A DNA stretch of 64,000 nt from Nocardioides sp. cx-173 (GTDB lineage: Bacteria; Actinomycetota; Actinomycetes; Propionibacteriales; Nocardioidaceae), in the NCBI RefSeq assembly GCF_021117365.1, contig NZ_CP088262.1, positions 1,240,001-1,304,000 on the forward strand. The letters run 5' to 3'. Below, in pieces: positions 41,851 through 64,000 of this stretch; positions within the stretch are counted from its first letter, which is position 1; each line of letters opens with the position of its first letter. Under the pieces are notes generated by a model. The model ran no database searches, was not told the DNA's origin, and worked only from the letters and a program-made list of their open reading frames with translations. Made by a program: the position numbers and the translations under genes.

Positions 41851-41892
41851 GACCCCGGGCCGGACCCCGGGCCGCGACCCCGAGACGGGGTC
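41851..41892. repeat. tandem 12-bp repeat and small hairpin
   Basis: GACCCCGGGCCG occurs twice in tandem (41851-41862 and 41863-41874), followed by GACCCCG-AGA-CGGGGTC, a 7-bp hairpin whose right arm touches the stop of the downstream minus-strand lyase gene. It may terminate that gene. The 95-bp gap between the ATPase start and the lyase stop holds no gene. Confidence 0.55.
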
Positions 41893-48405: not shown

Positions 48406-49113
48406 TCAGGCCTCGAGCGCGGCGGTGCGGGCCTCGAGGGCGGCGCGCAGCGCGTCCTCGCTGGCGTCGAGGTGGGCCACCCAGGCCTCGCGCGTCTGCG
48501 CGGCGTCGCGCGCGCGAGCGTGCTCCAGGATCGTGCGGTGCTCGCTGATCCGGTGCTCGCGGGCCTCCGGGGCGACGTCGAGCTCGCCCATGAGCAGGTG
48601 CAGGTAGCGGTCGGCGGTGTGCCACAGCAGCTCGAGGACGCGCAGGTCGGTCGCGCCCATGACGTCCTCGAGCAGGACGGCGTGGAAGTGGTGGTGGGCC
48701 GCGGTGAGGGCGGCCGGCTCGCGCTCGATGGCGACGTAGTCCTCGAGCGCGTCCTCGGCCTCGGCGATGCGCTCGTCGGTCATCTGCGCCACGGCGCGCT
48801 CGACGAGGTCGCCCTCGATGATGCGGCGCAGGCGGTAGATGTCGGTGAGGTCCTGGACGCTGAGCGAGGCGACGAGGGCGGACCGGCCCGGACGCAGGCT
48901 GACGATGCCCTCGCTCTCGAGCCGGCGCAGGGCCTCACGGACCGGGATGTGGCTGACGTCGAACTGCTCGCACAGCTCCACGATGGAGACCGCCGAGCCG
49001 GGCAGGATGTCGCCGACCAGGATGGCGCGCCGCAGCTCGTCGGTCACCCGGTCCACCAGGGACAGGTGCTCGATCGGTCGGACGGTCGACGTTGACCGCG
49101 CTCGTCGCGCCAT
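48406..49113 (-). CDS. GntR-family (FadR/VanR group) transcriptional regulator
   Basis: 235 residues. Winged helix (VDRVTDELRRAILVGDILPG, IPVREALRRLESEGIVSL), then an all-helical FCD-type ligand domain with likely metal ligands (Asp, His in LTAAHHHFHAVLLEDV and HRISEHRTILEHARA). FCD regulators sense carboxylic acids. Placed between the nitrilase and flavin-reductase genes, it is the best candidate regulator of the island. GAGGAG lies upstream of its ATG. Confidence 0.9.
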   Translation of the reverse strand: MARRARSTSTVRPIEHLSLVDRVTDELRRAILVGDILPGSAVSIVELCEQFDVSHIPVREALRRLESEGIVSLRPGRSALVASLSVQDLTDIYRLRRIIEGDLVERAVAQMTDERIAEAEDALEDYVAIEREPAALTAAHHHFHAVLLEDVMGATDLRVLELLWHTADRYLHLLMGELDVAPEAREHRISEHRTILEHARARDAAQTREAWVAHLDASEDALRAALEARTAALEA

Positions 49114-49256
49114 GGGGGGAGCTCCTCTATCCGGACACCGGACGGTGTTGCTGAGATTCTATATCCTCCTCAACCCTGCGCTCGATGAGGGCGTTCGCCG
49201 CACCTTGTCCCCGGCAGCCCGATATCGTATATTCTCTACAAATGAGAGGGGGAGCC
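49114..49256. promoter_or_regulatory. divergent promoter/operator region, gntR versus flavin-reductase operon
   Basis: Two AT islands: GAGATTCTATATCCTCC (49153-49168, gntR side) and GATATCGTATATTCTC (49221-49236). TATATT (49228-49233) is a likely -10, 8 nt before an ATG at 49242. GntR autoregulation and control of the 49257-56907 operon would act here. Confidence 0.58.
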
Positions 49257-51856: not shown

Positions 51857-53376
51857 CGACCACGTCGTACGACGCCGGCGCCGTGCGCCTGGAGCTGCCG
51901 GAGGTCTCGCAGCTCGTGGCCGGGCGCTGGTCGGTGCCGAGCGAGCGGCTCGACCTGGTCCTGGAGGACCCGTTCCTGGGGACGCAGCTGGGCTCCGCCG
52001 TCGCGACCGGCGCCGAGGACGTCGAGCGCGCGGGCGCCGCGGCCGCCGCGGCCTACCAGTCGGGCGCGTGGGTGCGGATGTCGCCCGGCGCGCGCGCCGA
52101 CGTGCTGGACGCGATCGCCACCGAGCTCGAGGAGGAGGTGCCCCGGCTCGCGGCGCTCGAGGCGTTCGCCACAGGCGTGCCGGTCAGCCAGACGAGCATC
52201 GTCGGGGTGATCGTGCCCGGCGCCTTCCGGCTCGCCGCGCAGATGCTGCGGGGCGGCGCCCTGCTCGAGGTGCTGGATGGCCCGGCCGGGCACCCGGTCG
52301 AGGTGCACCGGCTGCCTCTCGGCCCGGCCCTGTGCCTGGTGCCCTGGAACGCCCCCGCCCCCATGGCCGCCCACAAGGTCGCGAGCTCGCTCGCGGCCGG
52401 CTGCCCCACCATCCTCAAGCCGAGCGAGTTCGCCCCGTACGCGACCACGGAGATGGCGCGCGTCGTCTCCCGCGTGCTCGCGGACGCCGGCCTGGACAGC
52501 GGCGCCGACGTCGGCACCTTCCAGCTCGTGCAGGGCGGTCCTGCCGTGGGCGGGGCGCTGGTGCGGGACCCGCGGGTGCGGGCCGTCTCCTTCACCGGCG
52601 GCCTCGAGGGCGGGCGCGCCATCGCGACCGCGTGCGCCCCCGACTTCACCGCGACCCAGCTCGAGCTCGGCGGCAACAACGCGCTGATCGTGCTGCCGGA
52701 CGCCGACCCCACCGACGCCGCCCGGGCGGCGGTCGACCTGCTGACCACCCTCAACGGCCAGTGGTGCCGCGCGCTGGGCCGGCTGATCCTGCCCGCCGAC
52801 TCCGCCGACGAGATCCTCCGGCTCGCGCTGGAGCGGCTCGCCGGCCTGCGGACCGGCGACCCGCTCGACCCGGCCACCGAGCTGGGCCCGGTCGTGCACT
52901 CGGCCCACCTGGCCCGCCTGCGTGCGGCCATCGCGGACCGGGTCGCCCTCGGCGGGACGGCGGCGGCCACCACGCCGCTGCCCGACGGCGGCCACTTCCT
53001 GGCGCCGACCCTGCTGACGGGGGTGGCCTCCGAGGACGCCCTGCACGAGGTCTTCGGCCCCGTCGCCACCGTCCACGTCTACCGCGACGTGGACGGTGAC
53101 GACGGCGCGGTCGCCCTGGCCAACGCGACGCCGTACGGCCTCGAGGGCTACGTCGTCGGCGCCGACACCGAGCGGGCGCTGAACGTCGCGCGACGGGTCC
53201 GCGCCGGCGAGGTGAAGGTCAACGGGTCGACCATCATGAGCCTGCACCTGATGACGCCGCGCCCCGCCTGGGGACTCTCCGGGCTGGGTGAGGAGGGCAC
53301 GCTGGAGACCATCCGCGTGTTCACCGGTGCCCGGGTCGTCGGCCTCGAGGGTGGCTTCGCGCTGCACTCGCGGTGA
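51853..53376 (+). CDS. aldehyde dehydrogenase
   Basis: 507 residues, NAD(P)-dependent ALDH superfamily. PWNAPAPMAAHK, KPSEFAP, FTGGLEGGR, catalytic Glu271 (LELGGNN) and Cys305 (GQWCRALGR). It oxidises an aldehyde formed earlier in the pathway. GTG start overlapping the upstream stop; GTGA overlap with the lyase gene downstream. Confidence 0.9.
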   Translation: MTTTSYDAGAVRLELPEVSQLVAGRWSVPSERLDLVLEDPFLGTQLGSAVATGAEDVERAGAAAAAAYQSGAWVRMSPGARADVLDAIATELEEEVPRLAALEAFATGVPVSQTSIVGVIVPGAFRLAAQMLRGGALLEVLDGPAGHPVEVHRLPLGPALCLVPWNAPAPMAAHKVASSLAAGCPTILKPSEFAPYATTEMARVVSRVLADAGLDSGADVGTFQLVQGGPAVGGALVRDPRVRAVSFTGGLEGGRAIATACAPDFTATQLELGGNNALIVLPDADPTDAARAAVDLLTTLNGQWCRALGRLILPADSADEILRLALERLAGLRTGDPLDPATELGPVVHSAHLARLRAAIADRVALGGTAAATTPLPDGGHFLAPTLLTGVASEDALHEVFGPVATVHVYRDVDGDDGAVALANATPYGLEGYVVGADTERALNVARRVRAGEVKVNGSTIMSLHLMTPRPAWGLSGLGEEGTLETIRVFTGARVVGLEGGFALHSR

Positions 53377-54281
53377 GCGGCGTGACCTCTGACATCGGCG
53401 CGCCCCAGCGGCTGCGCGCGCTGGTCGGCGGGCCCGACGTGGTGCACCTGCCCGGCGTGTACGACGCGGTGACGGCGCTGCTCGCGGCCCGCGCCGGAGC
53501 CGCGGCGGTCTGCCTCTCCGGTGCGGCGACCTCCGCGGTGGCGCTCGGACTGCCCGACCTCGGCCACGTCCACGGCACCGACATCGCCGGGCGGGCCGCC
53601 GAGCTCACCGCCGTCCTGGGGGGCCTCCCCGTCCTCGCCGACGCCGACACCGGCTACGGCAGCGCCCTGCAGGCGCGCCGCACCACCCGGCTGTACGCGG
53701 CCGCGGGGGTCGGCGGCCTGCACCTGGAGGACCAGGCCTCGCCCAAGCGGTGCGGCCACCTCGCCGGCAAGGCGGTCGTCGGCCTCGCCGAGGCCGCGGG
53801 CCGGGTCCGGGCCGCCGCCGAGGCGGGCACCGACCTGGTCGTCGTGGCGCGCACCGACGCGCTGTCGGTCGAGGGGCTGGACTCCGTGGTCGAGCGCGCG
53901 GTCGCCTACGCCCGCGCGGGTGCCGACGCGATCTTCGTGGAGGGCGCCGACCTGACGGCCCACACCGCGGTGGCCGCCGCCCTCGAGCGGACCGTGGGGC
54001 CGGTGCCGCTGGTGCACAACCGCTCGGAGGCAGCGGGACCGGTCGACGCCGGTCCCACCGACGCCGAGCTGCGCGCCGTCGGGGTGCGCCTGGTCATCCA
54101 CCCGGTCTCGGCGCTGCTCGCCGCGGCCGCCGCCGCCGCCGAGGTCTACGCCGCCATCGCGCGCGACGGCCACGCCGCCGCGACCTCCCGTCTGGAGTGG
54201 ACGGGGCTCACCGACCTGCTGGGGCTGCCCGACCAGCTCGAGCTCGACCAGCGGTACGCCGCTTCCCTGGAGGTGCCATGA
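53373..54281 (+). CDS. isocitrate lyase/PEP mutase-family C-C lyase (2-methylisocitrate or dialkylmalate lyase-like)
   Basis: 302 residues, TIM barrel of the ICL/PEPM family. VHLPGVYDAVTALLA, Mg-site LADADTGYG (Asp90, Asp92) and the catalytic loop PKRCGHLAG with Cys127 mark a lyase rather than a mutase. Relatives cleave 2-methylisocitrate or 2,3-dimethylmalate to pyruvate plus a short acid. In this island a branched malate derived from a maleate intermediate would be a logical substrate (inference). GTG start. Confidence 0.83.
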   Translation: MSGVTSDIGAPQRLRALVGGPDVVHLPGVYDAVTALLAARAGAAAVCLSGAATSAVALGLPDLGHVHGTDIAGRAAELTAVLGGLPVLADADTGYGSALQARRTTRLYAAAGVGGLHLEDQASPKRCGHLAGKAVVGLAEAAGRVRAAAEAGTDLVVVARTDALSVEGLDSVVERAVAYARAGADAIFVEGADLTAHTAVAAALERTVGPVPLVHNRSEAAGPVDAGPTDAELRAVGVRLVIHPVSALLAAAAAAAEVYAAIARDGHAAATSRLEWTGLTDLLGLPDQLELDQRYAASLEVP

Positions 54282-55471
54282 GCAACCCGGTCATCGTCGT
54301 GGGGGCCGGGCCGGTCGGCCTGACCGCCGCCCTCACCCTGGTCCGCCGCGGCCTGCAGGTGGTCGTCCTCGAGGCGGGGCCGGGCCTGGCGGCCGAGTCG
54401 CGCGCCTCGACGTACCACCCGCCGAGCCTGGAGATGCTCGCGGAGCTGGGCGTCCTGGACGCGCTCCTGGAGCGCGGCATCGTCTCCACCACCTTCCAGT
54501 ACCGCGACCGGGTCGACGGGCCGATCGCCGAGCTCGACCTGGGCGCGCTCGCCGCGGACACGCCGTACCCGTTCCGGGTGCAGTGCGAGCAGAGCAAGCT
54601 CACGCCGATCCTGCTCCGGGCGCTGGAGGAGAGCGGGTCCGCCACCGTGCACTTCGAGCAGGAGGTGGTCGCGGTCGAGCAGGACCGGCACGGCACGGCC
54701 GTGCGCACCGGCAGCGGGCAGGAGTGGCGCAGCGACTGGCTGGTCGCAGCGGACGGCGCCAGCTCGGTGGTCCGCAAGAGCGTCGGCGCACAGTTCGAGG
54801 GGATCACCTATCCCGAGCGGTTTCTGGTCGTCTCCACGACCGAGGACCTGTCGACGGCGCTGCCGGGCATCGCGGCCGTCAACTACGTCTTCGACCCGCA
54901 CGAGTGGCTGGTCCTGCTGCAGACCCCCGAGCACTGGCGGATCCTGTTCCCCACCGACCCGGACACGCCGGACGAGGTCGAGACCGGCGCCGTACGCGTC
55001 CAGGAGCGGCTGCGGGGGGTGGCCGACCTGGGCCGTGACTGGGACCTCCTGCATGCCTCGCTGTACCGGGTCCACCAGCGGGTCGCCGACCGGTTCCGCA
55101 TCGGCCGGGCCCTGCTCGTGGGCGACGCCGCTCACGTCAACAACCCGCTGGGCGGGATGGGCATGAACAGCGGCATCCACGATGCCTGCCTGGCCGGTGC
55201 CGCGCTGGCCGACGTCATCGCCGGCGCCGACGCGGGCGTCCTCGACGCCGTGCTGGACGCGCGGCGCGACGTCGCCCTCTCCTACGTGCGCACGGTCACC
55301 CACGACAACTGGAAGCAGCTGCGCGAGACCGACCCGGACGCGCGCCGCGCCCACCACGACGAGCTGCGAGCCTTGGCGGCCGACCCGGCCGCCAGCCGTG
55401 CCCACCTCAGGCGGACCTCCATGATCGACTCGCTCCGTCCGCGCGACCTGGTCCCGGAGCCGCCGCGGTGA
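54278..55471 (+). CDS. class A FAD-dependent monooxygenase (aromatic hydroxylase type)
   Basis: 397 residues. Rossmann GxGxxG in VVGAGPVGLTAALTL, NADPH/FAD motif VAADGASSVVRKSVG, and ribityl-binding GDAAHVNNPLGGMGMNSGIHD. Related to phenol-type hydroxylases but without the C-terminal thioredoxin-like domain. It would hydroxylate an aromatic or pyrrolic ring with NAD(P)H and O2. Coupled by ATGA to the lyase gene and by GTG overlap to the second ALDH. Confidence 0.89.
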   Translation: MSNPVIVVGAGPVGLTAALTLVRRGLQVVVLEAGPGLAAESRASTYHPPSLEMLAELGVLDALLERGIVSTTFQYRDRVDGPIAELDLGALAADTPYPFRVQCEQSKLTPILLRALEESGSATVHFEQEVVAVEQDRHGTAVRTGSGQEWRSDWLVAADGASSVVRKSVGAQFEGITYPERFLVVSTTEDLSTALPGIAAVNYVFDPHEWLVLLQTPEHWRILFPTDPDTPDEVETGAVRVQERLRGVADLGRDWDLLHASLYRVHQRVADRFRIGRALLVGDAAHVNNPLGGMGMNSGIHDACLAGAALADVIAGADAGVLDAVLDARRDVALSYVRTVTHDNWKQLRETDPDARRAHHDELRALAADPAASRAHLRRTSMIDSLRPRDLVPEPPR

Positions 55472-56907
55472 TCACCCGCGAGAACCCCGCCCGCACCGAC
55501 GAGCTGGTCGGCACCGTCTGCGTCACCACGCCCGCGCAGGTCGACCGGGCGCTCGAGCGGGCGCGCGACGCGCAGCGCGGGTGGGCGGCTCTGGCCGTGC
55601 CGGACCGGGCGGGCGCGGTGCGCGCCGCGACGGGTGCGGTCGAGCCGGTGCTCGAGGAGCTGGCCGAGTTGATGGCGCGCGAGACCGGCAAGGTGCTGGG
55701 CGACAGCCGGGGTGAGCTCGCGTTCGCGCTGACCGTGCTGCGGTGGGCGGCCGACCGCGCCGAGGCGCTGCTGGTCGACCGCGAGCTCGACGACACCCAA
55801 GGCAGGCTCCTGGTCCGGCACCGCCCGTTCGGGGTCGTCGGCGCCATCACCCCCTGGAACGCGCCGGTGGTGCTGGCCGCGCTCAAGGTCGGACCGGCCC
55901 TCGCGGCCGGCAACGCCGTAGTGGTCAAGCCGTCGCCACTGGCGCCGTTCGCCGTGCAGCGGTTTCTGGAGACCGTCGCGGCGCGGCTGCCGGCCGGGCT
56001 GCTCCAGGTCGTGCAGGGTCACGCCGAGACCGCGGCCGCCCTGGTCGGCAGCTCGCTGGTCGACCGGGTGGCCTTCACGGGCGGGGAGTCCGCCGGCCGC
56101 GCGATCGGCTCGCTGGCCGGTCGCGCCCTGACGCCGGCCCTGCTCGAGCTGGGCGGCAACGACCCCGCCGTGCTGCTCCACGACGTGGTCCTCGACGACG
56201 GCGCCGCCGACCGGCTGCTCATGGCGGCGTTCGCCACCAGCGGCCAGGTGTGCATGGCCGTCAAGCGGCTCTACGTGCACCGCTCCCGCTACGACGAGGC
56301 GGTCGAGGCCCTGCGCGCCGCCGCCGACCGGATGCTGTGCGTCGGCGACCCGCTGCACGACGGGGTCTCGATGGGCCCGGTGGTGAGCGGCCAGTCCGCC
56401 GACCGGGTCTCCGCGCTCGTCGCGCAGGCCGTGGCTGGTGGCGCAGAGGCACTGGTGCTCGGCTCGGTCGATGCACAGACCGACCTCGGCCGCGGCTACT
56501 TCGTCCGCCCGAGCCTAGTGCTCGGTGCCGGCGACGCGGACCCGCTGGTCGCGGCCGAGCAGTTCGGCCCGGCGCTTCCGGTGCTCGCCTTCGACGACGA
56601 GGAGGAGGTGCTCGCGCGCGCCAACGCCGGGGACCTGGGCCTCGGCGCGTCGGTCTGGTCGGCCGACGAGGAGCACGCCTTCGCGCTGGGCGCCCGGATG
56701 GAGGCCGGCTTCACGTTCGTGAACACGCACAACCGCACCGGCCTGACTCTGCGGGCGCCGTTCGGCGGGGTGAAGCGCTCCGGCTGGGGTCGCGAGTACG
56801 GCGACGAGGGCGTGCTGGAGTACGTCCAGCCGTGCGTCGTCCACGCTCCCGCGGCCTTCCGCGCCGGTGGCGCGCCCCTGGCGGCGGCGGCGTACCCCAC
56901 CGGCTGA
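55468..56907 (+). CDS. aldehyde dehydrogenase (second copy)
   Basis: 479 residues. PFGVVGAITPWNAPVVLAAL, KPSPLAP, Glu227 (LELGGND) and Cys262 (TSGQVCMAVKR). Distinct from the ALDH at 51853 and lacking an N-terminal extension, so the two probably act on different aldehydes. Last gene of the operon; hairpins follow. Confidence 0.9.
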   Translation: MITRENPARTDELVGTVCVTTPAQVDRALERARDAQRGWAALAVPDRAGAVRAATGAVEPVLEELAELMARETGKVLGDSRGELAFALTVLRWAADRAEALLVDRELDDTQGRLLVRHRPFGVVGAITPWNAPVVLAALKVGPALAAGNAVVVKPSPLAPFAVQRFLETVAARLPAGLLQVVQGHAETAAALVGSSLVDRVAFTGGESAGRAIGSLAGRALTPALLELGGNDPAVLLHDVVLDDGAADRLLMAAFATSGQVCMAVKRLYVHRSRYDEAVEALRAAADRMLCVGDPLHDGVSMGPVVSGQSADRVSALVAQAVAGGAEALVLGSVDAQTDLGRGYFVRPSLVLGAGDADPLVAAEQFGPALPVLAFDDEEEVLARANAGDLGLGASVWSADEEHAFALGARMEAGFTFVNTHNRTGLTLRAPFGGVKRSGWGREYGDEGVLEYVQPCVVHAPAAFRAGGAPLAAAAYPTG

Positions 56908-57003: not shown

Positions 57004-57021
57004 CCTATAGATCATATATAG
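57004..57021 (+). promoter_or_regulatory. AT-rich operator/promoter of the RCCR-PAO-like operon
   Basis: CTATAGATCATATATAG is an interrupted palindrome (CTATA/TATAG arms) in otherwise GC-rich DNA, 35 bp upstream of the ATG. It shares ATCATATATA with the site at 42805 (minus strand). It can serve as -10 and as GntR operator. AGGAG at about 57042 is the ribosome-binding site. Confidence 0.62.
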
Positions 57022-57055
57022 TCTCGGAAAGACCTCACCACAGGAGCCGCGCAAG

Positions 57056-57868
57056 ATGAGCCAGAACCTGAAGTCCGTGCAGGAGCACTTCGACGCGGCT
57101 GCGCCGATCGACGTCTCGGAGACCTTCGCGACCTGGCTGGCGCTGGTCGAGCGGCTGCGGGCGCGGCTCGCCGAGCGGTTCGAGCTCACCCGCGACCCGT
57201 CCTCGGAGGTGCTCGAGTCCTTCGGCGGCAACGGCGGACCGACCGGCCGGGTGCGCACCTACGCCGGCCCGGAGATCGACTGGCTGGTGCACTCCCACAT
57301 GGAGAACGCCGCACTCGGCTTCTGCAACGTGCACCTCACGGTGTGGCTCGGCCCCCAGGTGCGGGTGCCGCACTTCGGGATGGCGCTGGGCGCCTTCCCG
57401 CACGGCTGGGTCTACCTCGACTCCGTGCCTCGCTCGAACCTGCTGACCGACACCGACTCGTTCGACCGCTACTACGCGCCGATCAACGCCCGGTGGGAGC
57501 AGATCCGCACCGAGAACACCTTCCTCGAGCCGTTCGTCAGCCGCAGCGCCTTCGTGCGTGCGGGGCTCTCGCCCACGGCGCACTGCTACATGGCGCCGCC
57601 CGACAGTCGCACCACGGACCTGGTGGCCGAGATCGCCGAGGAGCACCTGGAGCGCTGGCTCGGCTGGGTCGACGAGGCGGAGCGGGTGCCGCTCGAGGAG
57701 CAGGCCGAGCTCGCCGCCAGCGACGAGGCGATCCGCCGCAACATCGCCGAGCGGGACCCGGCCAACGAGATGGGCGACCGGTTCTTCGGCCCCGACATGA
57801 CCACCACCCTGGTGCGTGCCCTCTGGGGCGGCGACCGGGTCCTCGCCCGCGCGCACGAGCGGGGCTGA
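57056..57868 (+). CDS. red chlorophyll catabolite reductase (RCCR)-like protein
   Basis: 270 residues. The order of motifs follows plant RCCR: PHFGMALG (105-112), a strand ending in Asp122 then VPRSNLLTD (plant: LPHRKDLVL), DRYY (137-140), PFVSRSAFVRAGLSPTA (159-175; plant: PYVSPSLFVRSAFSPTA), and an acidic ERDPANEMGDRFFGPD near the C-terminus. RCCR is a ferredoxin-dependent bilin reductase that reduces the open-chain product of pheophorbide a oxygenase. There is no plastid transit peptide. First gene of an operon with PAO-, hydrolase- and NYC1-like partners. Recalled alignment, not a search. Confidence 0.8.
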   Translation: MSQNLKSVQEHFDAAAPIDVSETFATWLALVERLRARLAERFELTRDPSSEVLESFGGNGGPTGRVRTYAGPEIDWLVHSHMENAALGFCNVHLTVWLGPQVRVPHFGMALGAFPHGWVYLDSVPRSNLLTDTDSFDRYYAPINARWEQIRTENTFLEPFVSRSAFVRAGLSPTAHCYMAPPDSRTTDLVAEIAEEHLERWLGWVDEAERVPLEEQAELAASDEAIRRNIAERDPANEMGDRFFGPDMTTTLVRALWGGDRVLARAHERG

Positions 57869-57871
57869 CCC

Positions 57872-58861
57872 GTGTCGGTCTACGTCCGCACGGCGCGCAC
57901 CGCCGTCCGCGTCCCCGGGGCACCCGCCCCCTACGACACGGTGCACGTGGTTGCGCGCTACCCGGCGCTGCCGGCCCAGGACGAGGCCCAGCGCATGAGT
58001 GGCCGGCTCGACGCCGACGCCGCCGGCGCGCCGTACCCGGTCGTGGTGATCGCCTCCGGCGTGAACCTGCCGGCGGACGGCTACCGATGGCTCGCCTGCC
58101 GCCTGGTCGAGGCCGGCTTCGTCGTGGCGGGCTACGACTGGCTGGGTGAGCTGTTCCCCGGCGAGCCGGGCCTCACCCCCGGCATCGACCTGGAGGCCGC
58201 CGGCCCCGAGCACTACGGCGAACGGCCGACCACGCCCGCGCTCGCGCCGGTGCTCGACGCCCTCGCGTCGCTCAACGGCTCCGGGCCCCTGGCCGGACTC
58301 CTGGACCTCGAGCGGGTCGGGGTGTTCGGTCACTCCGCCGGTGGCACGGTCCTGCTGCAGTCGGCGCGGGCCGAGTGGTTCCCCCAGGTGCGTGCCGTGG
58401 TCACCTACGCCGCCCACACCATGGCCGCGCAGGCGCTCGGCCACGCGCCCCGCACCCTGCTCGCCGCGCCCGTCGCGGCCCCGACCCTGCTGATCGACGG
58501 CACCGCCGACGGCGTGATCGCCGCGAGCGCGATCCGTTACGGCGAGCAGGCCGGCGCCGCGGCGCACGACCCGGTCGAGCGCACGTGGCGCGAGGCCCTG
58601 CCGGAGTCCACCGAGGCCTGGCTGGTCCGGCTCGCGGGCGGCGGCCACCTGCTGCCGGTGCACCCCGAGGACCCCTCGACCGCTCGCGGGTTCCTCGAGG
58701 AGCCCACCGACGCCGACCCCGAGCGGCTGCGCCAGGTCCTCGCGGACCTCGTCACCTCGTTCCTGGCCGCGAAGCTCCTCGGTCGCCCCGAGGACAAGCA
58801 GCGGCTGGAGCAGCTCACCGAGCAGCCGCCGTCCGAGATCGCCGACATCCACCGTCGCTAG
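57872..58861 (+). CDS. alpha/beta hydrolase, chlorophyllase/PAF-acetylhydrolase-like
   Basis: 329 residues. Oxyanion region VVIASGVNLPADGYRWLA, nucleophile elbow FGHSAGGTVL (chlorophyllases have GHSRGG), acid in LIDGTADGVIAA and histidine in AGGGHLLPV. It is an esterase that could remove a phytyl or methyl ester from a tetrapyrrole in this context. GTG start 3 nt after the RCCR-like stop. Confidence 0.77.
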   Translation: MSVYVRTARTAVRVPGAPAPYDTVHVVARYPALPAQDEAQRMSGRLDADAAGAPYPVVVIASGVNLPADGYRWLACRLVEAGFVVAGYDWLGELFPGEPGLTPGIDLEAAGPEHYGERPTTPALAPVLDALASLNGSGPLAGLLDLERVGVFGHSAGGTVLLQSARAEWFPQVRAVVTYAAHTMAAQALGHAPRTLLAAPVAAPTLLIDGTADGVIAASAIRYGEQAGAAAHDPVERTWREALPESTEAWLVRLAGGGHLLPVHPEDPSTARGFLEEPTDADPERLRQVLADLVTSFLAAKLLGRPEDKQRLEQLTEQPPSEIADIHRR

Positions 58862-58869
58862 GAGAAGCC

Positions 58870-60096
58870 GTGTTCAAGAACTTCTGGTACGCCGTCGAGT
58901 TCAGCTCCGACGTCGAGCCCGGGAAGCCCAAGAAGGTCAAGATCCTCGGCCAGCAGCTGGTGCTGTACCGCAAGACCAGCGACAACTCGGTGGTCGCGAT
59001 GTCGGACCTGTGCGTGCACCGGGGTGCGGCGCTCTCGGGCGGCGAGGTCAAGGGCGACTGCATCGTGTGCCCCTACCACGGCTGGGAGTACAAGCCGGAC
59101 GGGCAGGTGGAGAGGATCCCCGCCCACCCCGACAAGGGCATCCCGCGCAAGGCGCGGGTCGACGCCTACCCGGTTGTGGAGAAGTACTCCTTCGTGTGGG
59201 TCTACATGGGCGACCTCCCCGAGGAGGAGCGCCCGCCGATCCCGGACTGGTCCGACATCGACGACACCGAGACCTATCGCGCGGTCCGGGGGGAGTTCCT
59301 CTGGAAGTCCAACTACGAGCGGATCCTCGAGAACGGCGTCGACGTCGCCCACACGCCGTTCGTGCACGGTGGCGTCTTCGGCAACCGCGAGAAGCCCGAG
59401 GTCCCGGAGTTCGAGGTCGAGAGCTCGCCGTGGCACTGCAAGGTGTCGGTGGTCCTCAACCCGCCGCGCTCCAAGGGCCTGTGGGGCGCGATCAACCCCA
59501 ACAAGCAGGCGCTCGCCGACCGCCCGCCGGTCCCGGTCTCGACGACCTGGTGGCTGCCCAACATGATCCTGCTGCACATCCAGACCCCGATGGGCGACCT
59601 GAAGATCTTCGACGTCAACATCCCGATCGACGAGGAGACCACGCTGGTCAAGTTCGTCGCGCTGCGCACCTTCTTCAAGGGCAAGTGGGCCGACCGTGAC
59701 GCCCGCCGTCGCGTCTTCAAGGTGCTCTACGAGGACCAGGCGATCGTCGACAACGTCCGGCCCGAGCTGCTGCCCTTCGACCTCTCCGACGAGCTGCACG
59801 TGAAGAGCGACATCAACGCCGTGATCTACCGTCGCCGCCGCCGTGAGCTCATCGAGATGGGCTGGGGAGTCGAGGGCAACATGATCGCCGGCGAGGGGCC
59901 GGCCCGGGTGGAGGCCCGCGTCATCCCCTCCCCGATCCGCAAGGAGGTGCCCGAGCTCGCGAGCGCCTGGAACTTCAAGGAGGTCCGCAGCCGGGAGATC
60001 CTCTCCGGCAACGCCGACCGGGCCCAGCGCGGCGACTCGCCGCGCACCGACCCCGTGCCCGAGGGCACGGAGACCATCGAGGAGATCACCGCATGA
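58870..60096 (+). CDS. Rieske non-heme iron oxygenase, pheophorbide a oxygenase (PAO)-like
   Basis: 408 residues. Rieske ligands Cys48-x-His50 and Cys67-x2-His70 (DLCVHRGAALSGG, CIVCPYHGWEYKPDG). Mononuclear iron facial triad Asp158, His161, His166 (ENGVDVAHTPFVHGG). Single-component oxygenase alpha subunit without a beta subunit or TM helix, unlike plant PAO, which is membrane-bound with a C-terminal CxxC. It needs a ferredoxin/reductase not in this window. GTG start with AGGAG. The operon setting with RCCR- and NYC1-like genes suggests cleavage of a macrocyclic tetrapyrrole; vanillate-type demethylase is the main alternative. Confidence 0.85.
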   Translation: MFKNFWYAVEFSSDVEPGKPKKVKILGQQLVLYRKTSDNSVVAMSDLCVHRGAALSGGEVKGDCIVCPYHGWEYKPDGQVERIPAHPDKGIPRKARVDAYPVVEKYSFVWVYMGDLPEEERPPIPDWSDIDDTETYRAVRGEFLWKSNYERILENGVDVAHTPFVHGGVFGNREKPEVPEFEVESSPWHCKVSVVLNPPRSKGLWGAINPNKQALADRPPVPVSTTWWLPNMILLHIQTPMGDLKIFDVNIPIDEETTLVKFVALRTFFKGKWADRDARRRVFKVLYEDQAIVDNVRPELLPFDLSDELHVKSDINAVIYRRRRRELIEMGWGVEGNMIAGEGPARVEARVIPSPIRKEVPELASAWNFKEVRSREILSGNADRAQRGDSPRTDPVPEGTETIEEITA

Positions 60097-60863
60097 CCGC
60101 CGACATCAGCCTGCCCGCCGCCCTCTGCCAGGGGGCGCTCGACCGGGTGGTCGAGCGCGCCCACCTCACCGAGGTGACCGGCGCCGACGGCGGAGCGCTG
60201 CTCCCGCTCACCTCGAGCGCCTTCGGCGAGCCGATGTCCGTCGGTGAGGCGCGGGTGTTCCACGGCGAGAAGGTGGCCAAGGCCGTCTACGTCGGCATCG
60301 TGGTCCCGCAGATCCAGATGGACAGCCACATGGTCTTCGCCTTCACGCCCGAGGACAGCCCGGTGCCGCACTTCACCCTGGACTCCGTGCACGCCGGCGG
60401 GCACCACGCCTTCCACCTCGACCTGATCCAGCGGGTCGACGCCGGCACGCACATGGCCTACAACGACTGGGCGCACGCGCCTCTCACCGAGGCCTACGAG
60501 TCGGTCCAGGGCAACCCCGGCTACACCAAGGCCGCGCTGGAGCCCCGTCAGCTCACGGTCATGTCGTCGTGGATGCTGGCCGCCCGCTCCACGGTGGAGG
60601 CCTTCGCCGAGCTGGACGCGCCGGTGCACACCTACCTGGACCACTGGCTCTCGCTGCTGGAGGGCGAGGTGCCGGCCGAGGTCGCCGCCGACATCGCCGA
60701 CACGGACCTCGCGGCTCGTGACGCCCGCAACCGCGGCCTGCTGTTCAGCCCGCAGGTCGACAAGGTCTGGGCACAGATCTCCCGGCTGCTCGGCGACGAG
60801 CAGGCCGAGGCCGTCCGCCTGCTGCTGCTCGACAACTCGCTCCCCGTGGGGCAGCCGGCGTGA
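60093..60863 (+). CDS. second RCCR / ferredoxin-dependent bilin reductase-like protein
   Basis: 256 residues. PVPHFTLDSVHAGGHHAFHL then DLIQRVDAGTHMAYND (residues about 91-125), with PLTEAYESVQ and an ALEPRQLTVMSSWMLAA segment. These follow the same strand and helix order as the RCCR-like protein at 57056 (PHFGMAL ... LDSVPRSNL ... PFVSRSAFV), suggesting a distant paralogue. It may form a heterodimer with it or bind a second bilin. Coupled by ATGA to the Rieske gene and by GTGA to the next. Confidence 0.62.
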   Translation: MTADISLPAALCQGALDRVVERAHLTEVTGADGGALLPLTSSAFGEPMSVGEARVFHGEKVAKAVYVGIVVPQIQMDSHMVFAFTPEDSPVPHFTLDSVHAGGHHAFHLDLIQRVDAGTHMAYNDWAHAPLTEAYESVQGNPGYTKAALEPRQLTVMSSWMLAARSTVEAFAELDAPVHTYLDHWLSLLEGEVPAEVAADIADTDLAARDARNRGLLFSPQVDKVWAQISRLLGDEQAEAVRLLLLDNSLPVGQPA

Positions 60864-61837
60864 CCGCTGTCTCCGCCCCGGCGACCGGCGAGGCCGGCAC
60901 CAGCGAGTGGCAGCAGCGCATCGCGGGGGAGTGGCACGGTCGCCCCGGGCTGTTCGACGCCCAGGGCAACCACGTCGGCTTCGAGCGGGTCGACCGCGCG
61001 AGCGTCGTCGAGGACGGGGTCTCCCGCTACTGGATGAACACCGAGCTCGAGGGCTCCGGCCCGCTGCGCAACCGCTTCGAGCTGGGGGCGCACTTCGACT
61101 TCGGCATCGTCGACTCCGACGAGAACCGGGTCTACTGCGGGCCTGACTTCTACGGCACCGGGCAGCCCTACGGCCTGTTCGTCGAGGCCAACTACTACTC
61201 GCCGGGCTGGCAGGCGGACCTGCGCACCTGGAACCAGGTGCTCGCCGACGGCGAGACCCAGGTCTACTCCTCGGTCCTCCACGACGGGTGGGCGGTGTGC
61301 GCGGTCTTCAACGGCATCTACAAGCGCACCTTCGACCACGAGACGAACCCGGAGACCCAGCGCTTCGTCGAGGACTGGATCGCGCTGGAGACCCGGCGCG
61401 GCCCCCGGCCGCAGGTGCTGCCGACCAAGGAGCAGGGCGCCTGGAGCGGGACGCTGTTCGTCGACCCCGTCGACCACAGCGAGGCCGGCGAGGTGCAGGT
61501 CGTCATCGAGCACGCCCCGCAGTCGCTGCGCCAGGCGCACCAGCAGGTCACCTGGAGCGGCGCGCTGGACCGGAGCTACGGCTTCGACCGGGTCCGTGAC
61601 GGCGCCCGCACCCTCTACGAGGGCCCCGAGGTGTTCGGCAACGCGCTCTCCTACGGTCGCGCGCTCTTCACCACCCAGCACCTGGTCGGTGCCGACGCGC
61701 GGGGAGTGGAGAAGATCCGCGGGCGCGAGGTGCTCATCGACGCCGACACCCGCGAGCTCGCCGTCGTCTGGCAGCTCTTCCACGGCGAGACCGCCACGCA
61801 CTTCGTCCACGGCCTGCTCACCTGGGAGGGTGTGTGA
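60860..61837 (+). CDS. calycin/lipocalin-like protein, probably two tandem barrels (DUF3598-like)
   Basis: 325 residues. GEWHGRPGLFDAQG (about 26-39) starts one beta-barrel, and GAWSGTLFVDP (about 194-204) starts another, each with the lipocalin-type GxWxG. Aromatic strands (DFGIVDSDENRVYCGPDFYG, LFVEANYYSPGWQ) would line a ligand pocket. No signal peptide. Function unknown; a tetrapyrrole carrier or lyase-like role is an inference from the operon. Confidence 0.6.
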   Translation: MTAVSAPATGEAGTSEWQQRIAGEWHGRPGLFDAQGNHVGFERVDRASVVEDGVSRYWMNTELEGSGPLRNRFELGAHFDFGIVDSDENRVYCGPDFYGTGQPYGLFVEANYYSPGWQADLRTWNQVLADGETQVYSSVLHDGWAVCAVFNGIYKRTFDHETNPETQRFVEDWIALETRRGPRPQVLPTKEQGAWSGTLFVDPVDHSEAGEVQVVIEHAPQSLRQAHQQVTWSGALDRSYGFDRVRDGARTLYEGPEVFGNALSYGRALFTTQHLVGADARGVEKIRGREVLIDADTRELAVVWQLFHGETATHFVHGLLTWEGV

Positions 61838-62667
61838 GCGGCGGCTCCGGCCGGGTCGTCGTCGTCACCGGCGGCACCCGGGGGATCGGCCTGGGCCTGG
61901 CCCGTGAGCTGATCGCCCGCGGGTGTCGCGTCGTGGTCTGCGGACGCTCGGCGGCCGCGGTCGACGACGCCGTGGCCGGGCTGGCCGGGCTGGCCGGGGT
62001 GGGGGGTCCGCAGGTCGTCACCGGCCTCGCCACCGACGTCACCTCGCGCGTGCAGGTCCAGGCGCTGTGGGACCACGCCGTCGCCACCTTCGGCCGGGTC
62101 GACGTGTGGATCAACAACGCCGGGATGTCGGCGCCGCGCGGCCCGCTCCCGGAGCTCTCCGAGGAGACCTTCGCCGAGGTCGTCGCGACCAACCTGGTCG
62201 GCGTGGCCAACGGCTGCGCGGTGGCGCTGCCCGGCCTGCAGGCGCAGGCCGCGGGCGGGTGGCTGTGGAACATGGAGGGCTTCGGCTCCAACGGCCAGCA
62301 CCAGCCCGGCCTGGCGGCGTACGGCGCCACGAAGCGCGCGGTGACGTACCTGACCGAGTCCCTGGTCCGAGACGCCAAGGGCGGCAATGTCAAGGTCGGC
62401 TTCCTCTCGCCGGGCATCGTCGCCACCGACCTGCTCACCGCCGACTACGACGGCCAGCCCGAGGCGTTCGAGAAGGCGCGCAGGATCTTCAACATCCTCG
62501 GCGACCGCGTCGAGACCGTGACCCCGTGGCTGGCCGAGCACCTGCTGGATGCTCGCAAGAACGGCGCGCGGGTGGCGTGGCTGACCACGCCCAAGGTCAT
62601 GGGGCGCTTCCTGACCGCCGGCTTCCGCACGCGCGACATCTTCGCCGCGCCCGCCGAGGCCCGCTGA
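61834..62667 (+). CDS. NYC1/NOL (chlorophyll b reductase)-like short-chain dehydrogenase
   Basis: 277 residues. TGGTRGIG (12-19), NNAG (94-97), Ser152/Tyr163/Lys167 catalytic set. Beyond the general SDR core it carries WNMEGFGSNG, AAYGATKRAVTYLTESL, LSPGIVATDLL, FNILGDRVETVTPWLAEHL and VAWLTTPK. These parallel plant NYC1/NOL (NMDGAGS, YGSTK, ASPGMVLTDLL, FNIICELPETVARTL, INYLTPP). Those enzymes reduce the 7-formyl group of chlorophyll b. Start and stop overlap both neighbours. Confidence 0.8.
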   Translation: MSGGSGRVVVVTGGTRGIGLGLARELIARGCRVVVCGRSAAAVDDAVAGLAGLAGVGGPQVVTGLATDVTSRVQVQALWDHAVATFGRVDVWINNAGMSAPRGPLPELSEETFAEVVATNLVGVANGCAVALPGLQAQAAGGWLWNMEGFGSNGQHQPGLAAYGATKRAVTYLTESLVRDAKGGNVKVGFLSPGIVATDLLTADYDGQPEAFEKARRIFNILGDRVETVTPWLAEHLLDARKNGARVAWLTTPKVMGRFLTAGFRTRDIFAAPAEAR

Positions 62668-63347
62668 TGGCGATCGACCCCTGCACGGAGTACGGGCTGG
62701 CGCTCGCGGTGGAGGACTTCGTCCCGGTGCTGCTCGCCGGCGCCGGCAGCGTCGTGCTGGCCCTCGCCGCGGGCCGGGTCGTGCCGTCGGTCCGGCTCCC
62801 GGCCCTGCTCGCCGGTGCCCTGGTCACGCTGGGCGGCTTCGCCAAGGCGCTGTGGAAGCTGCTGGTCGCCGCGGAGCCCTGCCGCGACTACCCGTTCCTG
62901 GAGGGCCTGCTGTTCCCGTGCCTGGCGTTCGGCTTCGCCGGGATCGCGTGCGCCCTGGTCGGGGTGTGGCGCGGCCGGCCGGCCCCCTGGTGGCCGTTCC
63001 TGGTCGCCCCCGGCGTCGGCGCCCTGCTCGCGGTGCAGACCTCGGACACCTGGCCGCTGCTGGTCGTCTCCGCCATCGGCGCGGTCTTCGTCGGCATCCT
63101 CGGGATCCGGCTCTCGCACCGGGAGGGGCACTCCCTCGGCGTCGTGCTCTTCGTCGTCTACATCGTCGGCACGCTCGTGCTGCCGCCGCTGGCCTCTCGT
63201 CCCCACCAGTCCGAAGAGCTGCAGTGGGCCGAGCAGCTGACCAACTCCGTCGTCCAGCTGTGCTTCCTGCTCGGCGCCCTCGGGCTCCGCAGGCACGTGC
63301 CGGCCCAGGACACCGCCACCCCTCGTACCGTAGGAGCACCCCAGTGA
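62667..63347 (+). CDS. multi-pass membrane protein of unknown function
   Basis: 226 residues with about six to seven hydrophobic helices (VLLAGAGSVVLALAAG, LLFPCLAFGFAGIACALVG, LGVVLFVVYIVGTLVLPPLA). The N-terminal DPCTEYG and AEPCRDYPF contain cysteines at the membrane edge. No transporter family is recognised. It overlaps the NYC1-like stop as TGATG and the next gene by GTGA, so it belongs to the tetrapyrrole-like operon. Confidence 0.62.
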   Translation: MAIDPCTEYGLALAVEDFVPVLLAGAGSVVLALAAGRVVPSVRLPALLAGALVTLGGFAKALWKLLVAAEPCRDYPFLEGLLFPCLAFGFAGIACALVGVWRGRPAPWWPFLVAPGVGALLAVQTSDTWPLLVVSAIGAVFVGILGIRLSHREGHSLGVVLFVVYIVGTLVLPPLASRPHQSEELQWAEQLTNSVVQLCFLLGALGLRRHVPAQDTATPRTVGAPQ

Positions 63348-64000
63348 CCGACCGCCTCGGCTGGCGCCGCAAGTTCGGCGTGATCGCCCCGAGCACCAAC
63401 ACCATCGTCCAGCCCGAGTTCGACGCGATGCGGGTCCCGGGCGTGACCTCGCACTATGGGCGGATCCTGATCCGCGACGGCCGGATCGCCGACGACGAGG
63501 GCATGCAGAACCTACTGGTGCAGATCCGGGCCGCGATGGACGACTGCGTCGAGGGCATCATGACCATGGAGCCCGACTACATGGTCATGGGCATGAGCGC
63601 CGAGACCTTCTGGGACGGCGTCGAGGGCAACCGCCAGTTCGTCCAGCAGATCAAGGACCTCTCGGGCGGCCTGGGGGTCGCGACCGGCGCCGAGGCGTGC
63701 GAGCGGGCCCTGAACCTGTTCGGGGCGAAGCGGATCGCCGTGATCACGCCGTACACGCCGATCGGCGACGAGAACGTCGCCAAGTTCTTCACCGAGCTCG
63801 GCTTCGACGTCGCGCAGGTCAAGGGCCTCAGCTGCCCCACCGCGGTGTCCATCGCCCATGTCAGCGAGCAGACCCTGCGCGAGTCCCTCCTGGAGGTCGA
63901 CGACGCCGACGTGGACGCGATCGTCCAGTGCGGGACCAACCTGTGCATGACCGAGCTCGCCGACGAGGCCGAGCGCTGGCTCGGCAAGCCGGTCATCGCG
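63344..64000 (+). CDS. maleate isomerase / arylmalonate decarboxylase-like (Asp/Glu racemase superfamily), 3' truncated by window edge
   Basis: First 219 residues. N-terminal RRKFGVIAPSTNTIVQPEF, MGMSAETFWDG and GVATGAEACERALNLFGAKR (phosphate/oxyanion loop of the superfamily), and IVQCGTNLCMTEL with Cys196 and Cys201. The first catalytic cysteine of two-Cys racemases/isomerases is replaced in MGMSAETF, as in the arylmalonate decarboxylase group, so either a one-base decarboxylase or a maleate-type isomerase is possible. GTG start; AGGAG at about 63332. Confidence 0.78.
   Translation, partial: MTDRLGWRRKFGVIAPSTNTIVQPEFDAMRVPGVTSHYGRILIRDGRIADDEGMQNLLVQIRAAMDDCVEGIMTMEPDYMVMGMSAETFWDGVEGNRQFVQQIKDLSGGLGVATGAEACERALNLFGAKRIAVITPYTPIGDENVAKFFTELGFDVAQVKGLSCPTAVSIAHVSEQTLRESLLEVDDADVDAIVQCGTNLCMTELADEAERWLGKPVIA

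What the first reader, a model, noticed from the sequence alone, without database searches (positions are those of the whole stretch)
57056..62667. Bacterial operon resembling the plant chlorophyll-breakdown (PAO/phyllobilin) pathway
Six tightly overlapping genes include homologue-like versions of four plant enzymes: RCCR (57056), chlorophyllase-like esterase (57872), Rieske oxygenase of PAO type (58870) and NYC1/NOL chlorophyll b reductase (61834). There is also a second bilin-reductase-like protein (60093) and a calycin (60860). Seen: the catalytic motifs and gene order. Known: in plants these act in the order NYC1, esterase, PAO, RCCR on chlorophyll. Inferred: a soil/plant-litter actinobacterium may degrade chlorophyll, pheophorbide or another tetrapyrrole. 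I know of no described bacterial operon of this composition.
Basis: partly seen in the sequence, partly recalled or inferred. Interest (0 to 1): 0.96.

Follow-up and report, generated by a model that had tools for sequence, protein, structure and literature searches.

The report
Bacterial regulon for tetrapyrrole pigment breakdown
Soil bacteria carry a conserved, apparently jointly controlled set of genes, including three relatives of the plant enzyme that finishes off chlorophyll, that looks like a pathway for eating chlorophyll-like or bile-like pigments.

Summary

The six genes belong to a larger island that recurs in Nocardioides, Actinomadura, Nocardia, Streptomyces, Nonomuraea, Actinocorallia, small-genome actinobacteria and a deltaproteobacterium. 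A palindrome, rare in the genome, precedes the RCCR operon, a GntR regulator with monooxygenase genes, ring-hydrolase/CoA-transferase genes and, in related Nocardioidaceae, the third RCCR, a transporter locus and a linked reductase.

Best reading: a regulon for aerobic catabolism of a linear or opened tetrapyrrole down to central metabolites. Chlorophyll-derived material is the likeliest substrate; this is unproven. My searches of an open-access library (capped listings) showed no description of it.

The parts
57056..57868 (+). R1: RCCR-family protein (270 aa)
   Evidence: Pfam PF06405 E 5.8e-13, 49.1 vs cut-off 24.9 bits; family profile vs PDB: RCCR 6.7e-22, GtPEBB 2.9e-9, HY2 6.3e-6; Asp234 in 38 of 38 aligned R1/R3 rows, position 110 is Ala in 31, Val in 6, Glu in 1
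57872..58861 (+). EST: alpha/beta hydrolase with GHSAG (PETase/dienelactone-hydrolase-like)
   Evidence: PF12740 26 bits, below cut-off 28; PDB best PET hydrolase E 5e-4; GxSxG at 153
58870..60096 (+). Rieske non-haem iron oxygenase, VanA_C/SxtT/NdmA-like, not PaO family
   Evidence: PF00355 2.1e-25, PF19112 7.8e-22; PDB SxtDIOX 1.9e-42; motifs
60093..60863 (+). R2: divergent bilin-reductase-fold protein (256 aa)
60860..61837 (+). CALY: two-domain calycin, DUF3598/BFA1-like
61834..62667 (+). SDR: classical short-chain dehydrogenase (YGATK)
   Evidence: PF00106 4.3e-40; PDB generic SDRs; YxxxK at 163
62667..63347 (+). MEM: conserved membrane-protein-like ORF of the operon
   Evidence: in 18 of 38 neighbourhood rows; no Pfam match above cut-off
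63344..64000 (+). RACE: Asp/Glu-racemase-superfamily (EutA/arylmalonate decarboxylase-like); runs past the window end to position 64090
   Evidence: PF17645 1.3e-13; operon copy 69-88% identical in 21 other Nocardioidaceae, Actinomadura, Nocardia, Streptomyces, Nonomuraea and Actinocorallia-type rows, 53% in a small-genome row, 45% in the deltaproteobacterial row
57010..57023 (.). operator-like palindrome GATCATATATAGTC upstream of R1
   Evidence: one of 5 sites with up to 3 mismatches in the 4.45-Mb genome (backward control pattern: 2); also one of the sites from which the consensus was chosen
49155..49168 (.). operator-like palindrome GATTCTATATCCTC between GntR and FlavRed
48406..49113 (-). 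GntR/FCD regulator, candidate controller (binding inferred)
   Evidence: PF00392, PF07729; in 8 of 38 rows
46771..48399 (+). NITR: carbon-nitrogen hydrolase (542 aa)
   Evidence: PF00795 5.5e-42 over residues 2-257; in 24 of 38 rows
49257..50531 (+). FlavRed: flavin reductase with a C-terminal part that has a weak HMGL-like match
   Evidence: PF01613 3.6e-46, PF00682 5.5e-5 (below cut-off)
50600..51856 (+). FMO: acyl-CoA-dehydrogenase-fold flavin enzyme, possible flavin-dependent monooxygenase
   Evidence: PF02770, PF02771, PF08028; weak matches to HsaA, DszC and p-hydroxyphenylacetate-hydroxylase models as well as to acyl-CoA dehydrogenases; in 23 of 38 rows
51853..53376 (+). ALDHa: aldehyde dehydrogenase (by similarity to ALDHb)
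   Evidence: not scanned with Pfam
53373..54281 (+). PEP mutase/methylisocitrate-lyase-like lyase
   Evidence: PF13714 2.2e-37; PrpB model 3.2e-65, below cut-off; in 8 of 38 rows
54278..55471 (+). FAD monooxygenase
   Evidence: PF01494 3.3e-60
55468..56907 (+). ALDHb: aldehyde dehydrogenase
   Evidence: PF00171 1.3e-124
44033..44668 (+). isochorismatase-family amidohydrolase, possible island member
   Evidence: PF00857 6.7e-35; in 5 of 38 rows
41891..42790 (-). HMG-CoA-lyase-like protein, possible island member
   Evidence: PF00682 6e-38
42822..44030 (+). family III CoA-transferase, possible island member
   Evidence: PF02515 1.7e-129

Best explanation
This is the centre of a regulon, probably GntR-controlled, that lets soil and aquatic bacteria use a tetrapyrrole pigment as food. 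Proposed order (inferred): surface proteins and a LIV-type ABC transporter take up the pigment or its bilin. The esterases (57872 and a MES-like hydrolase beside the third RCCR) remove ester groups, and the SDR and, in Nocardioidaceae, the linked 365-aa reductase reduce side chains. The Rieske oxygenase opens the macrocycle or oxidises the bilin. Three RCCR-fold reductases (57056, 60093 and the third, outside the window) reduce methine bridges or pyrroles. The calycin holds the pigment. Flavin monooxygenases and aldehyde dehydrogenases cut the chain to one-ring lactams or imides; nitrilase, hydantoinase-type and isochorismatase-type hydrolases open those rings; and isomerase, CoA-transferase, PrpD, CitE and PrpB-like enzymes take the alkyl-maleate pieces to central metabolism. 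Shown: families, folds, residues, neighbourhood, co-occurrence, shared palindrome. Inferred: every substrate and step. Chlorophyll-derived material is the most likely substrate (about 0.45 on its own).
For: RCCR family and fold. Bilin-reductase catalytic pair: GtPEBB Asp-99/Asp-219 are essential (PMC6755814, passages); the equivalents Asp97 and Asp223 are invariant in 27 of 27 R2 rows, and the second Asp in 38 of 38 R1/R3 rows. Conserved neighbourhood: of 29 non-cyanobacterial R1 rows, all 29 hold the Rieske gene, 28 R2, 26 CALY, 25 EST, 25 RACE, 24 NITR. Phylogenetic profile: R1 in 15 of 394 class genomes; CALY in 12 of 394, all within those 15 (hypergeometric 2e-20). Palindrome: 5 sites in the whole genome, 3 in the island; in nine genomes 15 of 52 sites lie within 50 kb of R1, expected 1.2. 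It lies at the promoters of the hydantoinase/PrpD/CoA-transferase operon in the own genome and three relatives, and of the sortase/surface-protein/transporter locus in three relatives. A 365-aa reductase is in 6 of 394 class genomes at E<=1e-15, all R1-positive, with a site or, by eye, a half-site upstream in the six copies looked at. Maleimides and hematinic acid are known chlorophyll and haem breakdown products (PMC7318184, passages).
Against: No activity data. R1 has Ala, and R3 Val, where RCCR has Glu154 and bilin reductases have Asp, so the canonical RCC reaction is not assured. No plant-type or bacterial-type ferredoxin motif was found among 592 neighbourhood proteins under 420 aa, although FDBRs, and RCCR by recall, need ferredoxin. 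No PAO family member, and no Rieske reductase recognised in the operon. SDR, esterase, Rieske and ALDH are common in aromatic catabolic operons, so their presence is weak evidence. The palindrome was not found at this threshold in 13 of 13 operon loci outside Nocardioidaceae that were scanned; in G754, which has R1, none of 7 sites is near R1. The 365-aa reductase is absent at E<=1e-20 from all 16 R1-carrying genomes outside Nocardioidaceae. One 99%-complete R1 genome (G055) had no CALY hit. Binding of the palindrome by the GntR protein is inferred only.
Confidence: 0.7

Rival explanations
1. The regulon degrades haem-derived bilins (biliverdin, bilirubin, urobilins, phycobilins) and not chlorophyll. 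Heme oxygenase or the environment supplies the bilin, and the RCCR-fold enzymes act as ordinary bilin reductases on the way to monopyrroles.
For: R2 keeps the full bilin-reductase aspartate pair. Heme oxygenase PF01126 occurs in 22 of 29 R-carrying genomes, 4 of the 29 being cyanobacteria. R1 has relatives in phycobilin-making Nostoc/Anabaena.
Against: In 21 of the 22 genomes with a hit it lies on another contig or at least 195 kb from the RCCR gene (own hit at 3.52 Mb, cluster at 1.30 Mb); G759 could not be compared. 7 of 29 have no hit at all, two of them only 70-76% complete. Two ester hydrolases have no obvious job on a haem bilin.
Confidence: 0.3
2. The RCCR fold has been turned to a different, non-tetrapyrrole ring compound (for example another pyrrole or lactam natural product), and this is an ordinary aromatic catabolic island.
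For: Most other genes (Rieske, flavin monooxygenases, ALDH, SDR, ring hydrolases, CoA-transferases) are typical of any aromatic or N-heterocycle pathway. R1 lacks the first catalytic acid. No ferredoxin motif nearby.
Against: Three RCCR/FDBR-fold paralogues lie in one island, two of them above Pfam's RCCR cut-off. All characterised RCCR and FDBR enzymes that I know act on open tetrapyrroles (recalled; the superfamily is discussed in PMC10151467, passages and one section). R2's aspartate pair is invariant.
Confidence: 0.2
3. The operon makes or modifies a pigment or signal and does not degrade one.
For: RCCR/FDBR enzymes also work in bilin biosynthesis (PMC10151467). Cyanobacteria carry R1-type genes.
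Against: The palindrome-linked and neighbouring genes are hydrolases, CoA-transferases, PrpD and an uptake-type transporter, as in catabolism. No biosynthetic tetrapyrrole family was among the Pfam matches of the island genes that I scanned; not all were scanned.
Confidence: 0.07

Closest known systems
Plant PAO/phyllobilin pathway (NYC1/NOL, PPH or chlorophyllase, PAO, RCCR, MES16)
   Same: RCCR-family reductase beside a Rieske oxygenase, an alpha/beta hydrolase and an SDR. The island also has a hydrolase whose nearest solved structures are plant MES/hydroxynitrile-lyase enzymes, the list including 5hk8 'probable pheophorbidase' at E 7e-7.
   Different: Rieske enzyme outside PaO PF08417. Three RCCR-fold proteins instead of one. 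R1 lacks Glu154. Adds a transporter, ring hydrolases and CoA steps. An operon system with its own candidate regulator.
Cyanobacterial RCCR homologues (Npun_R3277/R3279 and the Anabaena gene)
   Same: Same family, R1-type. Described as RCCR-like in Thomas et al. 2009 (PMC2716323, passages). Beside a CN-hydrolase-type gene and, in four of five loci, an aldehyde dehydrogenase.
   Different: No Rieske or R2 gene in the stretches held of the five cyanobacterial loci (three of them are cut by a contig end). Thomas et al. discuss plants and cyanobacteria in the passages read, not actinobacteria.
Bacterial pre-PcyA clusters (Rockwell et al. 2023, PMC10151467)
   Same: Bilin-reductase-superfamily genes in gene clusters of non-photosynthetic bacteria.
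   Different: Those clusters typically hold a heme oxygenase, V4R proteins, an Fe-S protein and bilin-binding globins. No heme oxygenase hit was seen near this island. Those proteins are FDBRs; R1 and R3 score as RCCR.
BciA/DVR-type 8-vinyl reductases
   Same: The 365-aa reductase resembles this family by recall only. tblastn finds an unnamed NAD(P)H-binding relative (29%, E 2e-23) on a Rhodobacter replicon.
   Different: No curated BciA/DVR model matched. Membership is not established.

Membership tests
RCC_reductase (PF06405), for 57056 | score above the curated family cut-off | tested here: met
   49.1 vs 24.9 bits; third copy 62.1 bits
RCC_reductase (PF06405), for 57056 | nearest solved relative is RCCR rather than an FDBR | tested here: met
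   profile search: RCCR 6.7e-22, GtPEBB 2.9e-9, HY2 6.3e-6, PebA 0.012
RCC_reductase (PF06405), for 57056 | acid at the Glu154 position (catalytic role recalled, no call) | tested here: not met
   Ala110 in 57056; Ala 31, Val 6, Glu 1 of 38 rows
RCC_reductase (PF06405), for 57056 | Asp at the Asp291 position (role recalled) | tested here: met
   Asp234, 38 of 38 rows; mapped by the alignment
RCC_reductase (PF06405), for 57056 | ferredoxin-dependent reduction of red chlorophyll catabolite | not testable with these tools
   needs enzyme assay
Ferredoxin-dependent bilin reductase (FDBR), for 60093 | FDBR/RCCR alpha-beta-alpha fold | tested here: met
Ferredoxin-dependent bilin reductase (FDBR), for 60093 | Asp-99/Asp-219 pair (GtPEBB numbering) | tested here: met
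   Asp97 and Asp223, 27 of 27 rows; mapped by two profile alignments in series, not by superposition
Ferredoxin-dependent bilin reductase (FDBR), for 60093 | match to PF05996 | tested here: not met
   no Pfam family at E<=1
Pheophorbide a oxygenase (PAO), for 58870 | PaO domain PF08417 | tested here: not met
   not listed at E<=1; no PF08417 hit in the own genome
Pheophorbide a oxygenase (PAO), for 58870 | Rieske CxH/CxxH and mononuclear iron motif | tested here: met
   Cys48, Cys67, NGVDVAHTPFVH at 155; common to Rieske oxygenases
Pheophorbide a oxygenase (PAO), for 58870 | C-terminal CxxC (recalled) | tested here: not met
   only four Cys, the last at 190
Chlorophyllase, for 57872 | match to a chlorophyllase-type model above cut-off | tested here: not met
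   PF12740 (now named PETase; once a chlorophyllase family, recalled) 26 vs 28 bits; no other such model listed
NYC1/NOL chlorophyll b reductase, for 61834 | groups with NYC1/NOL among SDRs | not testable with these tools
   no plant NYC1/NOL sequence or model was available; only generic SDR matches
DUF3598/BFA1 calycin, for 60860 | two-domain calycin fold over most of the length | tested here: met
pre-PcyA bilin cluster | heme oxygenase in the cluster | tested here: not met
   PF01126 hit at 3.52 Mb, far from the island
pre-PcyA bilin cluster | V4R proteins and bilin-binding globins | not tested
   no such family was among the Pfam matches of the own island genes scanned, but no dedicated search was made
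BciA/DVR 8-vinyl reductase, for the linked 365-aa reductase | match to a family model or to an authentic member | tested here: inconclusive
   no curated model matched; resemblance recalled only

The most novel reading that the evidence does not exclude
This is the first gene-level view of a dedicated bacterial pathway that takes chlorophyll-type tetrapyrroles from the (opened) macrocycle all the way to central metabolites, under one regulator. It uses three RCCR-superfamily reductases and a non-PAO Rieske oxygenase, and it is spread across soil actinobacteria, a small-genome actinobacterial lineage and a deltaproteobacterium. The plant RCCR may descend from this bacterial family.
Probability: 0.45. 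Interest if true: 0.95.

Novelty: new variant of a known kind. Interest (0 to 1): 0.84.

Why it matters
Chlorophyll is made and degraded on a 10^12-kg yearly scale (PMC7318184, passage). The described plant pathway ends in bilins (phyllobilins), with some one- and two-ring products also reported (PMC7318184). The listings that I saw from an open-access library showed no bacterial pathway that finishes the job (listings capped, titles and abstract starts only). If this regulon does it, the environmental fate of chlorophyll, phyllobilins or haem bilins becomes a tractable genetic question. R2 and the calycin, rare in the genomes sampled, would serve as marker genes, and the family bears on the question raised by Thomas et al. 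2009 (PMC2716323, passages) of where land plants got RCCR.

Tried and rejected
PAO membership of the Rieske enzyme: rejected. Haem entry through a clustered heme oxygenase: no hit in the island. The ABM-family protein beside the third RCCR as an IsdG-type heme oxygenase: only three weak PDB matches, the best a chain called Oxygenase at E 0.21, and no NCBIfam model; left open. Staygreen Mg-dechelatase PF12638: 0 of 29 genomes, but the control genomes also gave nothing, so no conclusion. R1 on plasmids and phages: no match. PHROGs: no match for R1, R2, R3 or CALY. R2 profile against PDB sequences: no relative, best E 0.22; only the fold showed it. PF06405 missed the Nonomuraea genome G759 (28 of 29 positive) although tblastn finds R1 there (L048). 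Tree with Arabidopsis RCCR: it falls with R1/R3/cyanobacterial sequences and apart from two FDBRs, but with weak support (87/0) and a very long branch, so the origin of plant RCCR is left open. The BciA/DVR identity of the linked reductase could not be shown.

Palindrome caveats: the consensus was chosen by eye, from sites upstream of R1 (own, G319, L035), of R3 (G319) and of a transporter gene (G092), then made palindromic. Four of these are among the 52 sites counted; taking away five still gives 9e-8. The 50-kb limit around R1 was set after seeing the positions. G311 and G319 are close relatives, so their sites are not independent. The tool's control, the pattern read backwards, gives 14 sites in the same nine genomes against 52. 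G754 (0 of 7 near R1) and most distal sites do not fit. In 13 of 13 operon loci outside Nocardioidaceae that were scanned no site was found at 11 of 14.

A hand-made gene caller was used; starts are approximate. Neighbourhood labels are best BLASTP hits above 60 bits to own genes. The 38 rows include more than one stretch of G032, G004, G241 and G361.

Full report
WHAT IS THERE. Three of five junctions overlap by 4 nt and the first two are gaps of 3 and 8 nt. The run continues through a membrane-protein-like ORF (62667-63347) and an EutA/arylmalonate-decarboxylase-like gene that leaves the window (63344 to 64090). The window lies in a 4.45-Mb single-contig genome at 1240001-1304000. By R1 the nearest named relatives are Nocardioides (72-75%).

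CATALYTIC RESIDUES. [quoted passage not shown] Through the alignments, R2 carries both (Asp97, Asp223, invariant in 27 of 27). R1/R3 carry the second (38 of 38) but have Ala or Val at the first in 37 of 38 rows. The one exception, with Glu, is a Nostoc protein. Arabidopsis RCCR has Glu at that place in the printed alignment; that this is the catalytic Glu154, and that Asp291 matters, is recalled. A missing acid need not mean no activity: pre-1 bilin reductases lack the corresponding residues, and the one tested appears to make a small amount of product (PMC10151467, passages and one section).

THE OTHER FOUR. 58870 is a Rieske oxygenase with a VanA_C domain, nearest solved relatives SxtDIOX, SxtT and NdmA, not PaO. 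57872 is an alpha/beta hydrolase just under the PF12740 cut-off, nearest solved relatives PET hydrolases. 61834 is a classical SDR. 60860 is a DUF3598/BFA1-type calycin; lower matches include haem-binding nitrobindin and a phycobiliprotein lyase, which is suggestive only.

CONSERVATION. R1 occurs in 15 of 394 sampled genomes of the class. A scan of named genomes gave 22 confirmed loci out of 43 candidate stretches: Nocardioides, Actinomadura, Nocardia, Streptomyces, Nonomuraea, Actinocorallia, Anabaena, Nostoc, Goleter and a deltaproteobacterial MAG. I compared 38 neighbourhood stretches. Of 34 with an R1-type gene, 5 are cyanobacterial and have no Rieske or R2. All other 29 have the Rieske gene, 28 R2, 26 CALY, 25 EST, 25 RACE, 24 NITR and 23 SDR. 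Two of the 29 come from one genome (G032). R2 was in 3 of 396 genomes of the phylum sample, the own one included; all three carry PF06405. CALY was in 12 of 394, all among the 15 R1 genomes (2e-20 by the hypergeometric test). The three R1 genomes without a CALY hit are two incomplete ones (G050, G067) and one 99% complete (G055). The CALY profile was built from R1-linked loci, which favours finding those.

THE ISLAND. Upstream on the same strand: nitrilase, flavin reductase, acyl-CoA-dehydrogenase-fold flavin enzyme, two ALDHs, PrpB-like lyase and FAD monooxygenase, with a GntR/FCD regulator divergent from the flavin reductase. Downstream, outside the window: a sortase, large proteins without Pfam match, a neocarzinostatin-family protein and a branched-chain-amino-acid-type ABC transporter, then R3 with an oxidoreductase, divergent from an ABM protein, a MES-like hydrolase, a MaoC hydratase, an LLM enzyme, a CoA-transferase and a PrpD. 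Then come CitE and a hydantoinase-PrpD-cyclase-CoA-transferase operon. This is a toolbox suited to opening lactam or imide rings and disposing of alkylated maleates. Such ring products (maleimides, hematinic acid) are known from chlorophyll and haem breakdown (PMC7318184, passages). The link is inference.

SHARED PALINDROME. While looking at promoters I noticed an AT-rich palindrome. In the 56-kb own region it gives 3 hits at 11 of 14 or better, against a mean of 0.0 in 5 Markov shuffles. All are intergenic: before R1 (57010), between GntR and flavin reductase (49155), and before the CoA-transferase/hydantoinase operon. In the entire genome there are only 5 sites with up to 3 mismatches, 3 of them these; the backward control pattern has 2. 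Over nine genomes 15 of 52 sites fall within 50 kb of R1 against 1.2 expected (5e-13, or 9e-8 after taking away five sites); the backward control has 14 sites in all. In relatives they fall at the R3/ABM promoter (G319) and just before R3 (G311), at sortase/surface-protein promoters (G380, G092 and two in G755), and at the CoA-transferase operon (G755, G752, G753). In G754 none of the 7 sites is near R1, and in the 13 operon loci scanned outside Nocardioidaceae none was found, so the regulatory link is supported for Nocardioidaceae only.

A PARTNER FROM THE PALINDROME. Two distal sites, in G380 and G092, precede the same 365-aa NAD(P)-binding reductase. It is in 9 of 39 chosen genomes at E<=1e-20: the nine Nocardioidaceae with the R1 operon, none of 14 genus-mates without it, and none of 16 R1-carrying genomes of other groups. 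In the class sample it is in 6 of 394 at E<=1e-15 (five strong, one weak at 31%), all R1-positive. Six copies were looked at: two have a site within 3 mismatches, the other four a half-site by eye directly upstream. By recall it looks like BciA/DVR 8-vinyl reductase, a family of chlorophyll biosynthesis (PMC3931815 and others, search listing only). No curated model confirmed it, and its plasmid relatives carry only general names such as NAD(P)H-binding protein or SDR family oxidoreductase.

WHICH PIGMENT. For chlorophyll: the company of an SDR, two ester hydrolases (one nearest to plant MES-type enzymes) and a Rieske oxygenase; RCCR being nearer than FDBR for R1; and the lack of a heme oxygenase hit in 7 of 29 R-carrying genomes, with none close to the RCCR gene in 21 of the other 22 (G759 not comparable). 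Against: each of these enzyme classes is common, PAO and chlorophyllase are not there by family, and R2 has a bilin-reductase active site. I put chlorophyll-derived material at about 0.45, haem-type bilins at 0.3 and something else at 0.2-0.25.

KNOWN OR NEW. RCCR homologues in Nostoc and Anabaena were described in 2009 (PMC2716323, passages), and bilin-reductase clusters in heterotrophs in 2023 (PMC10151467, passages and one section). Eight searches of 5.39 million open-access papers on bacterial chlorophyll, tetrapyrrole, bilin or RCCR degradation listed nothing that describes this operon. The listings were capped (for example 25 of 41, 20 of 70, 20 of 1,283) and I saw titles and abstract starts. 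Subscription papers and preprints are not covered. I therefore file R1 and R3 as bacterial members of the RCCR family by Pfam, R2 as a divergent relative, and the system as a new variant that works like the front part of the plant pathway but is not a member of it, since PAO was tested and not met.

LIMITS. No biochemical evidence exists here. Gene starts come from a simple caller. Residue equivalences are from alignments, not superposition. Genome samples are limited to what the tools hold.

Noticed in passing
L022:282-9928 (own genome, next to the window): Between the operon and the third RCCR lie a sortase, large proteins without Pfam match, a neocarzinostatin-family protein and a LIV-type ABC transporter; the sortase-side promoter carries the palindrome in G380, G092 and G755. 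Possibly a surface capture and import system for a hydrophobic pigment.
   Followed up: partly
L074:6517-7614 and G000:C1:1368634-1369728 (L077): 365-aa NAD(P)-binding reductase with a site or half-site upstream, found strongly only in R1-positive Nocardioidaceae; resembles BciA/DVR by recall.
   Followed up: partly
L032, L033, L034, L064, L065: Small-genome actinobacteria (the two at least 93% complete have 1.4 and 1.7 Mb; stretches 53-61% GC) carry several RCCR-family matches each (4 at E<=0.001 in G004 and G032, 2 and 3 of them over the PF06405 cut-off), a striking investment; the four searched had no heme oxygenase hit.
   Followed up: partly
L050, L054, L055, L056: Cyanobacterial RCCR genes sit beside a CN-hydrolase-type gene and an aldehyde dehydrogenase; a DUF3598-type protein and a hydantoinase-like gene follow in L055/L056. 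This may be a reduced version of the same pathway.
   Followed up: partly
window 46771-48399: The nitrilase protein is about twice the length of its Pfam domain; one carbon-nitrogen-hydrolase-type model has its best stretch in the second half (385-463), so it may be a tandem.
   Followed up: no
window 49257-50531: The flavin reductase carries an extra C-terminal part with a weak HMG-CoA-lyase-like match, apparently a fusion.
   Followed up: no
L070:5190-6989: A GAF-domain histidine kinase (Pfam) lies behind the flavocytochrome-like gene that is divergent from the CoA-transferase operon; proteins that look alike by eye lie at the same place in L068 and L071.
   Followed up: no
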